Shown one piece after another: positions 18,601 through 24,600 of a stretch of DNA of 64,000 bases (the first letter of the stretch is position 1; every line of letters starts with the position of its first letter). A program made the translations under genes and the position numbers. Location: NCBI GenBank assembly GCA_037043455.1, contig JAWPHD010011502.1:1-64000 (forward strand). Reading direction: 5' to 3'. The notes beneath the pieces were generated by a model. The model did not search any database. It was not told where the DNA came from and saw nothing but the letters and a program-made list of their open reading frames with translations. Source of the DNA: Cyrtodaria siliqua (Eukaryota; Mollusca; Bivalvia; Adapedonta; Hiatellidae).

Positions 18601-21600
18601 AAATGAACTGTTCATCGGAATGTTTCACCATACCTCATGTTTCAATTTACAATGTAAATGCCCCTTTTTCATGTGTATCATGTGTGTATTAAAGACACAT
18701 GTCATATAAAGAAAATCTTCTTTTTTTTAACAATGGTATACTTCGAAATTTGAATGATGTGATAAAATGGCTTATTTTATTTAGAAATAATGTCTCGTCT
18801 GGTCTCGCTGGACAAATGGACTATTATATGGACTATTATATGGACTATTATATGGACTATTATATGAACATATTATTGCCAACTGGGTTATGAATCAGAA
18901 ATATGGTTGACATTGCTCATGCCTGAAATCTGCATTTGATTGAACATTTCACTTGACCATATCCCATAAATCTTAGATTTTTTTTTTTAAAGATGGCAGA
19001 CCAATAGTCTTGAAAGAGATCAATATTTTTACATAAGGTACACTATATGAGATACATCATATTGATTGTTGTTGTTTTAAGTTAACTGGGATGGTTTTCA
19101 TAATTCAATTCGCTGAATATAGTGTTTGAATTTGTATGTGTAACCTATGTTACACATCAATTGTGTTGAGAAACCTTTTTAAAAACAAGAAATCTGTGGA
19201 TTCACATGTCTCGTCTAATGGGGGCGGAACTTAACAATAAAAGATAACTGATGCTTAAATGAAAGTTTGTAAACAATTTAATAACTAAAATCAATGGAGT
19301 TTGCTGAGATGACATTTAAGTGCATTTGTTTAAAAACAAAATGCTATTCTATAAAAAAATTAAAATAAAATAAAAACAAGAGGTCAACGACCTTGAAGCT
19401 CTACTGATAGGTTTTTGATAGCTAGATCAGCATTCCTGTGAAGTTCCATGAAAAGTCTGTAAAGTAGTTTCAGAGGAATAGTCTCTACACGCTTTTACTA
19501 TATAACTCTATGTAAACAAAGATGGCCATTGGCAGCCATGTTTAACGTTGAATTGATTTTTGACATGTCATGAGGATCGTTTTAGAAGAAGCCCATATCA
19601 ATATCACCTATAGCAGTCGCTACAAATTTGTTCTTTTTAAATCTATTTTTAGCCGTGGTGGCCATCTTGAATTTCCACCCATCCTGAAAGTCCCAAATCC
19701 GTCAAGTAGTTTCAGAGGAGTAGTCGCTGCAAGTTTTTATTATATAACTCTATGTAAACAAAGGTGGCAGCTGACTGCCATGCTTAATGTCGATCAAAAT
19801 AATTTTCGACAAGGATCAACATCATGTCATGCTGATCAGTTTAGAAAAAGTCCCATATCAATATAATTGATAGTTTTCAAGAAGTAGTTGCTACAAACTT
19901 GTTTTTTAAAAATCTATTTTTAGCCGTGGCTTGAAATTTTGCTAGGATCCACTAGACATCAAGAGCAACATTCCTGTGAAGTCTCATGAAAATCAGTCAA
20001 GTAGTTTCAGAGAAGTCGCTACAACTTTTTACTATTTAACTCTATGTAAACAAAGATGGCCACTGGCAGCCATGTTTAACGTTGATTTTCGTCAAGGACC
20101 AACATCATGTTATGCTGATCATTTTAGAAAAAGTCCCATATCAATATCACTTATAGTTTTCAATAAGTATTCGATACAAACTTGCTTTTTAAAAATCTAT
20201 TTTTAGCTTTGGCAGCCATCTTGGAGTTCACATCAACATGAATTTGTGCTAGGATCAACTAGACATCAGTGGCAACATTTCTGTAAAGTTTCATGAAAAT
20301 CCATCCAGTAGTTTCAGAGGAGTAGTCGCTCCTAAAAATATTTATGGACGGACGGATAGACGGACACCGCACCATGGCATAAGCTCTGCTGATCTTTGAT
20401 CAGTAGAGCTAATAATTAAATAAATAAAAAATCATCAGCTCCAAAAAGTAGGTCAAGGTCATAGATGAAATCCCTGCGTCCAAAAAGACGCACTACCCAA
20501 GACACAACTTTGTCAAAATAGAATATTTTGTCTTCCAAAGATTAAGCTATAAACTAGGTTTAAAGCATCTAGTACATAATTATAGTTCATGAGAAAGTGA
20601 TGTAAATGTAACAATTAAAGTTATCTGCCCTTTGCTTGGATGGTGAAGGTCACATCCACATTTGCTTTTTGACACGTTGTGATGTACTACCCAAGAAACG
20701 ACTATAAGCGAAGTTTGAAAACTGTAGTGCATACAGTTTGCGAGAAAGTGACCTAAGCGCAAATGTTGAAGGTACAAATTATTAGGTTATCTGCCCCTTG
20801 CTTGGAGGGTCAAGGTTACATCCACATTTCCTTTGTCACTTTTCAGTGTACCACTCGATACAACTGTAAGTAAAATTTGAAAGCTCTAGTGCATAAAAAA
20901 GTTTACCCGTTCATAAAATATACATGCTAATCAAAGAGAAAAAAAACACACATTCAAAATGGTCAAGTTAAACAATTTGTTTTTGTTGAAATCAAAGTAT
21001 AACCCAGTTAAAAACTACACCAAACACAGGTGTATATGTTTTGTATGATAAACTATGATCGACAAATATATAAAGAGTGAAAGGCGTATAAAATAAACAA
21101 ACAAAAAACTGCACCAAAGTCCGCCATCTTTTTTTCATCGCAATTTCACGCTTCCTGGTTTGAGAACAAAACACTAAAAAAAGCAATTAAAAACTTGCTA
21201 AAAACAACCCACGCAAATCGTGAAAAGGATACTTACAATTTCGTTTTGCAGCAACTAACCATGTTGTTTATAATGTCTTCAACTATAAAACCCGATAAAT
21301 CATGGAGGGAAATCACATTCAACATTCTAAAACATGGCGGCTAAAGTGAACGTGCATGACCGAAGTATTCCGAATGAGTAGACGACAAGTGTTTGGCACG
21401 CTTCTGTCCGAGACCGATCCCTTTAATTATCATGACAGGAAACCGTGAGATATCTTTTTTAATGCCACAAAGGCCACAAAGAAGAGATTTAACCAATTTA
21501 GACTCACCTATTTGGATGCGAACGTGGCAGTACAAATCTGAACTCTACTACCAGGATACCATCCTCTAGCTCTCTATGTACCAGACAGTTCAAGTCATAT

Positions 21601-24600
21601 GCAATGTAAGCTCTCCTTATGTATACCTGTAAACAGTATGTATGTGATTGTATTTCCCAATTTATACAGGTACCTGTAAACAGTAATGTACGTGATTGTA
21701 TGTCCGGATTTATACAGGTACTTGTAAACAGTAATGTACGTGATTGTATGTCCCAATTTATACAGGTACCTGTAAACAGTAATGTACGTGATTGTATGTC
21801 CGGATTTATACAGGTACCTGTAAACAGTAATGTATGTGATTGTAGGTTCCAATTTATACAGGTACCTGTAAACAGTAATGTACGTGATTGTATGTCCCAA
21901 TTTATACAGGTACCTGTAAACAGTAATGTACGTGATTGTATGTCGGATATATTCAGTTACCTGTAAACAGTAATGTACGTGAATGTATGTCTGGATTTAT
22001 ACAGGTACCTGTAAACAGTAATGTACGTGATTGTATGTCCGGAGTTATAGAGGTACCTGTAAACAGTAATGTACGTAATTGTATGTCCGAAGTTATAGAG
22101 GTACCAGTAAACAGTAATGTACGTGATTGTATGTCTGCAGTTATAGAGGAACCTGTAAACAGTAATGTACGTGATTGTATGTCCGGAGTTATAGAGGTAC
22201 CTGTAAACAGTAATGTACGTGATTGTATGTCCGGAGTTATAGAGGTACCTGTAAACAGTAATGTACGTGATTGTATGTCCCGATTTATACAGGTACCTGT
22301 AAACAGTAATGTACGTGATTGTATGTCCAGATTTATACAGGTACCTGTACACAGTGATGCATGTGATTGTATGTTCAGATTTATACAGGTACCTGTAAAC
22401 AGTAATGCACGTGATTGTATGTCCAGATTTATACAGGTACCTGTAAACAGTAATGTACGTGATTGTATGTCCAGATTTATACAGGTACCTGTACACAGTA
22501 TAAATGCACGTGATTGTATGTCCAGATTTATACAGGTACCTGTACACAGTGATGCATGTGATTGTATGTTCAGATTTATACAGGTACCTGTAAACAGTAA
22601 TGCACGTGATTGTATGTCCAGATTTATACAGGTACCTGTACACAGTAATGCACGTGATTGTATGTCCAGATTTATACAGATACCTGTCAACAGTAATGCA
22701 CGTGATTGTATGTTCAGATTTATACAGGTACCTGTAAACAGTAATGCACGTGTTTGTATGTCCAGATTTATACAGGTACCTGTACACAGTAATGCACGTG
22801 ATTGTATGTCCAGATTTATACAGGTATCTGTAAACAGTAATGCACGTGATTGTATGTCCAGATTTATACAGGTATCTGTAAACAGTAATGCACGTGATTG
22901 TATGTCCAGATTTATACAGGTACCTGTAAACAGTAATGCACGTGACTGTATGTCCAGATTTATACAGGTACCTGTAAACAGTAATGCACGTGATTGTATG
23001 TCCAGATTTATACAGGTACATGTAAACAGTAATGCACTTGATTGTATGTTCAGATTTATACAGGTACCTGTAAACAGAAATGCACGTGATTGTATGTTCA
23101 GATTTATACAGATACCTGTAAACAGTAATGCACTTGATTGTATGTTCAGATTTATACAGGTACCTGTAAACAGAAATGCACGTGATTGTATGTTCAGATT
23201 TATACAGATACCTGTCAACAGAAATGCACGTGATTTTTATATTCAGATTTATACAGGTACCTGTAAACAGTAATGCACGTGATTTTTATGTTCAGATTTA
23301 TACAGGTACCTGTAAACAGTAATGCACGTGATTGTATGTTCAGATTTATACAGGTACCTGTAAACAGTAATGCACGTGATTGTATGTCCAGATTTATACA
23401 GGTATCTGTAAACAGTAATGCACTTGATTGTATGTTCAGATTTATACAGGTACCTGTAAACAGAAATGTACGTGATTGTATGTCACAATTTATACAGGTA
23501 CCTGTAAACAGTAATGCACGTGATTGTATGTCCAGATTTATACAGGTACCTGTAAACAGAAATGCACGTGATTTTTATATTCAGATTTATACAGGTACCT
23601 GTAAACAGTAATGCACGTGATTTTTATGTTCAGATTTATACAGGTACCTGTAAACAGTAATGCACGTGATTGTATGTTCAGATTTATACAGTTAAGAATT
23701 GTATTCTGGACAATCTTAGAGGAACACATGGCAATATCTTGTGTCCTTTTTTGCCAGAAATGTTGTTTTGTTGTATTACCAAATTTTGTCTGAATGGTGT
23801 TTATCATCATTTTTCAGTACATTTAAGGCTATGTATAACAGTCAGTTTGTAGTGGTGGAGGCAGACCACCCACTTATTCCTGGGTAGAACCAGTACTGTA
23901 TATCTACCACCATCCGTAGTGTTACCAAATATACGCAAATTGTGCCCTAGGTATTGAGTTGATATTATATCAAATATTCAATTAAGATCCACAAATTGAA
24001 CAGAAAAGAGGATGTGTTTCCTTTAATATAGTAAATGTTTTAAATGTCTGAAGGAACATATGGAATATTTATAAATATGAAAATTTACTGATTTATAGGG
24101 AAAAAATAATAGCAACTGTATGAAAAATATGCATACTTAAAGGTAATAATGCTTTATTTGACCAATAAAGGATTTTGCATTCATTAGCAGAGGTTTTCTT
24201 TGCTTTAAATGATATTTATCAATAGTCCATATCGTGGGCTTAGCGCGAAACTAGTCTATCTGCATTTTTCGAAATTATCGAGGAGAAGCAAAAAACTGAT
24301 TATTATTGCAATGAAAATAATTATGGGCATTTCATTAAGCAATAACATCAAACAAATCAATTTATCACTTAAATATCTGATTTTTTAAAAGAAAAAACAT
24401 GATTTAAAGATTTTGTCAAATAGACTAGTTTCACGTCAAATTGGAGATATGTTGAAAATAATATTAGCGCGAAACTAGTCTATTTGCCCCAAAATTACTT
24501 TTTAAGCCATTATTCTGGTCTAGATTGATAAGTAATGATCTGTTATAAAATAATTTAATAGAATTTTACCTCTATAAACCAACCTTTTAGGTTAAAAGAC

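What the first reader, a model, noticed from the sequence alone, without database searches (positions are those of the whole stretch)
21508..23692. A splice acceptor amplified ~43 times upstream of its own exon
Seen: exon 4 of ACC starts at 21626 after ACTGTTTACAG. The 48-bp array begins at that junction, and every unit repeats ACTGTTTACAG|GTACCTG in transcript orientation. Spliceosomes approaching exon 4 therefore meet about 43 near-identical decoy acceptors first. Exon 3 ends in phase 0, so a decoy would read GTA CCT GTA TAA: a stop at the fourth codon in every unit. The array could act as a poison-acceptor reservoir that sets ACC output through nonsense-mediated decay, or the real site must be marked by something else, such as an exonic enhancer in exon 4. 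Inference: selection may tolerate the array because exon definition is strong.
Basis: partly seen in the sequence, partly recalled or inferred. Interest (0 to 1): 0.88.

Follow-up and report, generated by a model that had tools for sequence, protein, structure and literature searches.

The report
Splice site copied 42 times
In the acetyl-CoA carboxylase gene of an animal that is likely a clam-like bivalve, a short stretch of DNA holding the splice site of one exon is repeated 42 times in the intron before it (55 times in what is likely the other allele), a kind of repeat known as a "mirage" in amphioxus, and the look-alike splice sites are predicted to be ignored rather than to act as a gene switch.

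Summary
A 48-bp unit (last 45 bases of intron 3 plus the first 3 of ACC exon 4) is repeated head to tail upstream of exon 4: 42 copies besides the real site, 39 of them with AG, 38 of those 39 with a stop at codon 4. It is not alone. In the same gene the exon 1 donor is repeated (8 decoys, all ATT|GTAAGT), and so are the exon 2 acceptor and exon start (4 decoys). A second contig of the same assembly, likely the other allele, has the same splice sites at its ten compared exons but 55 and 3 decoys. These match "mirages", boundary-duplicating minisatellites of amphioxus genes, reported to leave splicing undisturbed (PMC3087553, PMC3902484). A donor mirage also sits in a TCP-1-family gene of this genome. 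The poison-reservoir idea gets no support: decoy AGs show no preservation, copy number differs between the two copies, and 35% of the window is tandem repeat anyway. Most likely these are slippage products tolerated because exon definition favours the exon-proximal site (inferred; no RNA data). New member of a known kind; my ten paper searches showed none outside cephalochordates.

The parts
21624..23691 (-). 48-bp tandem array (mirage) seeded at the intron 3 / exon 4 border; 42 decoy copies, 39 with AG
   Evidence: TRF; unit listing; AG count
21508..21626 (-). ACC exon 4 (119 nt, phase 0 start); real acceptor TTTACAG|GTATAC
21665..21678 (.). first of 42 matches (up to two mismatches) to the palindromic core TACAGGTACCTGTA; the dyad spans the unit-unit junction and the decoy AG|GT
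34533..34622 (-). ACC exon 3 (90 nt), phase 0 end, donor GAG|GTAAAC
48970..49478 (-). 57-bp tandem array carrying the exon 1 end and donor: real donor plus 8 decoys, all ATT|GTAAGT
   Evidence: TRF
49470..49594 (-). ACC exon 1 of the window (125 nt), whose donor is copied
40772..41122 (-). 95-bp tandem array carrying the exon 2 acceptor and a copy of most of the first 47 nt of exon 2; decoy exon starts at 41082, 40980, 40885 and 40790 (the last copy runs below the TRF edge)
   Evidence: TRF (alignment score 46; maximum of 1000 shuffles 26)
40479..40706 (-). ACC exon 2 (228 nt)
   Evidence: two matches in the genome search

Best explanation
The array is a minisatellite of the 'mirage' kind, in which a 48-bp segment made of the last 45 bases of intron 3 and the first 3 bases of ACC exon 4 is repeated 42 times into the intron, and its decoy acceptors are predicted to be bypassed because exon definition would hold the spliceosome at exon 4. 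Shown: three borders of this one gene (exon 1 donor, exon 2 acceptor, exon 4 acceptor) carry such arrays, each on the intron side, and in a second contig of the same genome the exon 2 and exon 4 arrays differ in copy number while the ten compared exons keep the same splice sites and protein. Inferred: the arrays grow by replication slippage or unequal exchange in a genome rich in tandem repeats. Those that leave one intact exon-proximal site survive because acceptor and donor are recognised together across a short, purine-rich exon, and an exon 4 decoy used by mistake would put a stop codon well over 50 nt before the next exon junction, so the mRNA would be degraded. A weak local RNA hairpin over the decoy junction may help.
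For: Unit anatomy and the seed at the border. Same construction at the exon 1 donor and exon 2 acceptor. Second locus copy: over exons 2-11, 4 differences in 1164 coding bases, no amino-acid change, acceptor (-15 to -1) and donor (+1 to +6) bases identical at all ten; 55 against 42 decoys at exon 4 and 3 against 4 at exon 2; exon 2 had two matches in the genome search, as two haplotypes would. Units resemble the exon-proximal copy less with distance (Spearman 0.44 with unit order), as expected if growth homogenised the inner array. A local copy (24 of 30 bases within 3 kb) exists for 43% of 4000 random intron positions, 1.7% of 174 exon-interior positions and 1 of 23 borders (the exon 1 donor): repeat-rich introns, protected exons. 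Decoy AGs are not preserved (AG pair deviates in 3 of 42, rank 12 of 47 dinucleotides). Purine triplets are richer in the exon than in the array. AGs above the real site's score are common in ACC introns: 319 in 45.6 kb outside the array. A donor mirage in a PF00118 gene of this genome. Amphioxus mirages are reported not to interfere with regular splicing (PMC3087553, passages read; PMC3902484, passages read).
Against: No RNA data were available, so bypass of the decoys is inferred. Two of 23 exon borders lie within 10 nt of a repeat edge against 0.43 expected (P 0.07), so a mild preference for borders is not excluded. The array is about three times denser in acceptor-like AGs than other introns (19.9 against 7.0 per kb; 41 in 2065 bp, densest other stretch of that length 23). 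Hairpin hiding is weak: 32 of 39 AG-keeping decoys have the 5-bp stem and the real site does not, but the real AG ranks 5th to 12th of 43 in openness over three folding spans and 11th to 18th of 52 in the second copy, where at two of three spans it is no more open than the decoy mean; only a six-base window around the junction ranks 2nd to 4th in both. The donor decoys at exon 1 match the real donor from -9 to +6, so their rejection has to be explained wholly by context. Allelism of the second contig is inferred from identity and copy number, not from a pedigree.
Confidence: 0.77

Rival explanations
1. Poison-acceptor reservoir: decoys capture a share of exon 3 splicing, their stop codon sends the mRNA to decay, and array length sets ACC output.
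For: 39 AG-bearing decoys, 38 with a stop at codon 4; all 39 outscore the real acceptor on a small matrix; by their order the decoys are transcribed before the real site.
Against: Decoy AGs are not preserved; copy number 42 against 55 between the two locus copies with the shared exons intact; a like array in a TCP-1-family gene stays open in frame through its first five decoys, so the stop is not a shared design; amphioxus mirages are reported not to give aberrant mRNA.
Confidence: 0.1
2. Recursive ladder: decoys are used, but each AG|GT rebuilds a donor (GAG|GTACCT) that is spliced again to exon 4, so errors erase themselves.
For: 36 of 42 copies keep AG|GT; the rebuilt donor scores 5.00 against 5.28 for exon 3's own donor in 31 of 39 cases.
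Against: The rebuilt donor lacks the usual G at +5 (general knowledge; exon 3's own donor lacks it too); AG|GT is explained by exon 4 itself starting with GTA; fly work finds that ratchet points need a cryptic exon, with the stronger donor winning (PMC8605326, passages read). The matrix rests on 10 donors.
Confidence: 0.08
3. A dispersed repeat or mobile element landed at the exon and brought its own acceptor.
For: The unit is palindromic at its junction, as some mobile or hairpin-prone repeats are (general knowledge).
Against: A genome search with a 261-bp piece found it only at the two ACC contigs (that tool skips very common words and scores best candidates only); the core has no match in the window outside the array; no exact 22-base match in viral contigs or genome contigs, which hold mostly other organisms. 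The exon 1 and exon 2 arrays contain exon sequence.
Confidence: 0.05

Closest known systems
'Mirage' minisatellites of amphioxus: Adh3, globins BflGb6 and BflGb9, troponin C, PGBD5 (PMC3087553 and PMC3902484, passages read; Canestro 2002 seen only as a reference)
   Different: Here in what is likely a bivalve; three in one gene; 42 and 55 decoys at one site, against 6 and 3 units in the two BflGb6 haplotypes. In the exon 4 array the unit is 45/48 intronic and its consensus junction is a perfect palindrome.
IFI6 (6-16) minisatellite with multiple splice donors (Turri 1995; only the title seen in reference lists)
   Same: By its title, a minisatellite that supplies repeated splice donors, as the exon 1 array could.
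   Different: Usage is unknown here, and the main array repeats an acceptor.
Intron gain by tandem duplication of AGGT segments (Rogers 1989; Hellsten 2011; PMC4974935, passages read); also 'introns from tandem arrays' (Zhuo 2007, title only)
   Same: Tandem units bounded by AG|GT could in principle be read as introns.
   Different: In the Rogers model the duplication starts in exon sequence and creates a new intron; here the seed is almost all intron and no new intron is evident.
Ratchet points of recursive splicing (PMC8605326, passages read)
   Same: Juxtaposed acceptor and donor, AG|GT, inside a long intron.
   Different: Here tandemly repeated 48 bp apart, with a weak donor half, next to the final exon; no evidence of use.

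Membership tests
Mirage minisatellite | Tandem repeat spanning an exon-intron border | tested here: met
   Exon 4 array enters the exon by 3 nt; exon 1 array carries the exon end and donor; exon 2 array carries a copy of most of the first 47 exon nt
Mirage minisatellite | Units carry AG or GT splice signals | tested here: met
   39 of 42 AG, 51 of 55 in the second copy; 8 of 8 GTAAGT at exon 1
Mirage minisatellite | Both 5' and 3' borders can be affected | tested here: met
   Exon 1 donor; exon 2 and exon 4 acceptors
Mirage minisatellite | Copy number differs between haplotypes | tested here: met
   42 against 55 and 4 against 3 decoys; allelism inferred; the exon 1 array had one match only
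Mirage minisatellite | Edge units escape homogenisation | tested here: met
   At the exon edge: real unit on average 81-86% identical to thirds of the array, units 90% among themselves; the far edge was not tested apart
Mirage minisatellite | Regular splicing undisturbed; somatic length change | not testable with these tools
   No RNA or single-cell reads
AGGT-duplication intron gain | Duplicated exonic segment yields a new intron | tested here: not met
   Seed is 45 intron + 3 exon nt; exons 3 and 4 join without an extra piece as in the proteins of relatives (strict motif contiguous in 33 of 39)
Recursive-splicing ratchet point | Juxtaposed AG|GT with a competent donor half | tested here: inconclusive
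   36 of 42 AG|GT; rebuilt donor 5.00 against 5.28 on a matrix of 10 donors
Recursive-splicing ratchet point | Used in stepwise intron removal | not testable with these tools
   No nascent RNA data

The most novel reading that the evidence does not exclude
The array is a tandem ladder of 36 (in the other copy 48) ratchet points: the first transcribed copies capture exon 3, each capture rebuilds a donor, and the transcript is re-spliced copy by copy into exon 4, so a minisatellite turns mis-splicing into a self-correcting, length-dependent timer of ACC production.
Probability: 0.07. Interest if true: 0.85.

Novelty: new member of a known kind. Interest (0 to 1): 0.5.

Why it matters
Mirages were described in amphioxus. 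Finding three in one central metabolic gene of what is likely a bivalve, with a further donor mirage in another gene, suggests that they may be a general by-product of repeat-rich animal genomes. They are natural experiments in splice-site choice: at exon 1 nine donors are identical from -9 to +6, and at exon 4 forty acceptors share nearly the same upstream 40 bases, so whatever picks the right one must lie largely in exon context and position. Two likely alleles with 42 and 55 decoys in one assembly make that directly testable by allele-specific RNA reads.

Tried and rejected
Enrichment of arrays at exon borders: not shown. Hairpin hiding of decoys as the main discriminator: weak in the first copy, weaker in the second; kept only as a possible aid. 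Selection on decoy AG: no sign. Dispersed-repeat origin: no copies elsewhere found. Branch points were compared by eye only and not scored, for want of a trained model. The donor tables had exon 7 shifted by one base; corrected, and only the corrected donor scores are used. One search listed 44 decoys for the window because two chance matches outside the array passed its wide search; the count is 42. Extending the survey of other genes beyond PF00118 failed because the service was busy. Papers asked for and not held. One search was a malformed search. Paper searches for the same thing in bivalves or with acceptor, VNTR and decoy terms gave nothing relevant; the listing led me to the amphioxus paper.
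Full report
What is there. The window holds part of an acetyl-CoA carboxylase gene on the minus strand. Exon 4 matches acetyl-CoA carboxylase 1 of the PDB, and the full-length named relatives found through it are led by Mya, Ruditapes and other bivalves, Dreissena among them. Mapping with those proteins gave 12 exons (borders); the joined 429 residues of the first 11 are 77% identical to the Ruditapes protein and 73-76% to the next three. 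The organism is therefore likely a heterodont bivalve; no call names it.

The array. TRF reports 21624-23691, period 48, 43.0 copies. Anchored on the acceptor, there are 42 copies plus the real site, mostly 48 apart. 39 of 42 keep AG, 36 of 42 keep AG|GT, and 38 of the 39 meet TAA at the fourth codon. The unit is the last 45 bases of the intron plus GTA of exon 4, and the consensus junction between units makes the perfect palindrome TACAGGTACCTGTA, with no match within two mismatches elsewhere in the window.

Not alone. Reading the other exon borders showed that the exon 1 donor is followed by a 57-bp array in which each unit repeats the exon end and donor: the real donor and 8 decoys are identical, ATT|GTAAGT. 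This array, real donor included, holds 9 of the 12 GTAAGT strings on the coding (minus) strand between 49469 and 653. Use of any of the 8 would meet a stop 12 nt on, 45 to 436 nt before the junction. Upstream of exon 2, a 95-bp array carries CAG plus a copy of most of the first 47 nt of exon 2 (local alignment score 46; best of 1000 shuffles 26), with four decoy starts; three outscore the real exon 2 acceptor and one does not, and three of four meet a stop.

A second copy of the locus. The genome search answered once the service was free and placed the window at C11502; the array also occurs on contig C18978. That 37.6-kb contig carries exons 2 to 12 in order (exon 6). Over exons 2-11 there are 4 differences in 1164 bases and no amino-acid change, and the acceptor and donor bases are identical at all ten. 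Exon 2 had two matches in the genome search. I read the contig as the other haplotype; a very recent duplication is not excluded. It has 55 decoys at exon 4 (51 with AG) and 3 at exon 2, and the exon 4 arrays are 56.0 against 43.0 TRF copies. The exon 1 array had only one match, so it could not be compared.

How special is it? Tandem repeats cover 35% of the window. Two of 23 exon borders lie inside one, against 8.15 for shifted positions; two lie within 10 nt of an edge, against 0.43 (P 0.07). Of 4000 random intron positions 43% have a local copy, of 174 exon-interior positions 1.7%, of 23 borders one (the exon 1 donor; that test, centred on the border, does not register the exon 2 and exon 4 arrays). 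AGs scoring above the real acceptor on a matrix of the gene's other 11 acceptors number 41 in the array, 77 in the rest of intron 3, and 319 in all introns outside the array; the array is about three times denser (19.9 against 7.0 per kb; the densest other stretch of equal length has 23). The matrix is small and should be read as a ranking aid only.

What tells the real site from the decoys? Not its upstream sequence: all 39 AG-keeping decoys score above it, and 50 of 51 in the second copy. Exon 4 is purine-triplet rich (0.151 per base; other exons 0.132; rest of intron 3 0.077, with 7% of its 119-nt windows reaching exon 4's value) while the array is poor (0.042; best 119-nt window 0.059). 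A hairpin over the junction is possible in 32 of 39 AG-keeping decoys and not at the real site, but local folding gives only a modest difference: over three spans the real AG ranks 5th to 12th of 43 in the window and 11th to 18th of 52 in the second copy, while the six bases around the junction rank 2nd to 4th in both. I infer exon definition as the main cause, with the hairpin as a possible aid.

Is the decoy property maintained? On a tree of 48 distinct in-register units (from 87 of 97 in both copies) the two AG positions show 5 changes (2.5 per site; 1.26 elsewhere), so no preservation. The CTGTA half of the palindrome shows 1 change in five sites (permutation P 0.02, one of five regions tested, not corrected).

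Other genes. Of 68 PF00118 (TCP-1 family) matches in the genome, 63 were examined with flanks, one of them cut by a contig end (the first 30 also). One (L041) has a donor mirage, the real CAG|GTATGT donor plus 8 further GTATGT copies, mostly 48 apart; three others (L053, L054, L058) have a single extra copy spanning an exon edge. Several of the 63 are likely two haplotypes or tandem copies of one exon, so these are not 63 independent exons, and edges were taken from profile matches, so the count is a lower bound. In L041 the reading frame stays open through the first five decoys, so the early stop of the ACC arrays is not a shared design.

Known kind. [quoted passage not shown] the PGBD5 paper adds PGBD5 and troponin C (PMC3902484, passages). 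The ACC exon 4 array meets each feature that I could test. My ten paper searches did not show one in a mollusc; that is a statement about those searches only.

Verdict. A real and striking set of mirages, most likely tolerated by-products of repeat growth with bypassed decoys. Function as a poison reservoir is possible but unsupported.

Noticed in passing
window 40790-40706, minus strand: The exon 2 decoy nearest the exon (CCAAG|GAACAA) is in frame and open: its use would add 28 residues beginning EQLCGKVFSLTEDLV (EQLCGKDFSLTEDLV in the second copy), resembling the exon's own start. A possible alternative isoform, though its acceptor scores low (-0.95 against 2.4).
   Followed up: partly
L041:1658-2010 (G000:C2470, PF00118 exon 208847-209005): Donor mirage in a TCP-1-family gene: the real CAG|GTATGT donor plus 8 further copies, mostly 48 bp apart, open in frame through the first five.
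   Followed up: partly
L053, L054, L058: Single tandem copies spanning an exon edge in other PF00118 gene loci, at 74-78% identity: older or one-step border duplications.
   Followed up: no
window 41831-44141: 66-bp array, 35.0 copies at 99% matches, in intron 1 of the window; 46.0 copies in the second copy: likely young and length-variable.
   Followed up: no
window 34670, minus strand: A pyrimidine-rich acceptor-like site CTTTTTCTCTACAG|GT lies 48 nt upstream of exon 3; seen by eye.
   Followed up: no
window 21624-23691: The duplicated seed begins with CTGTA (after one base) and ends with TACAG(GTA), so tandem joining creates a palindrome at the junctions; inverted ends may have promoted the duplication.
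   Followed up: no
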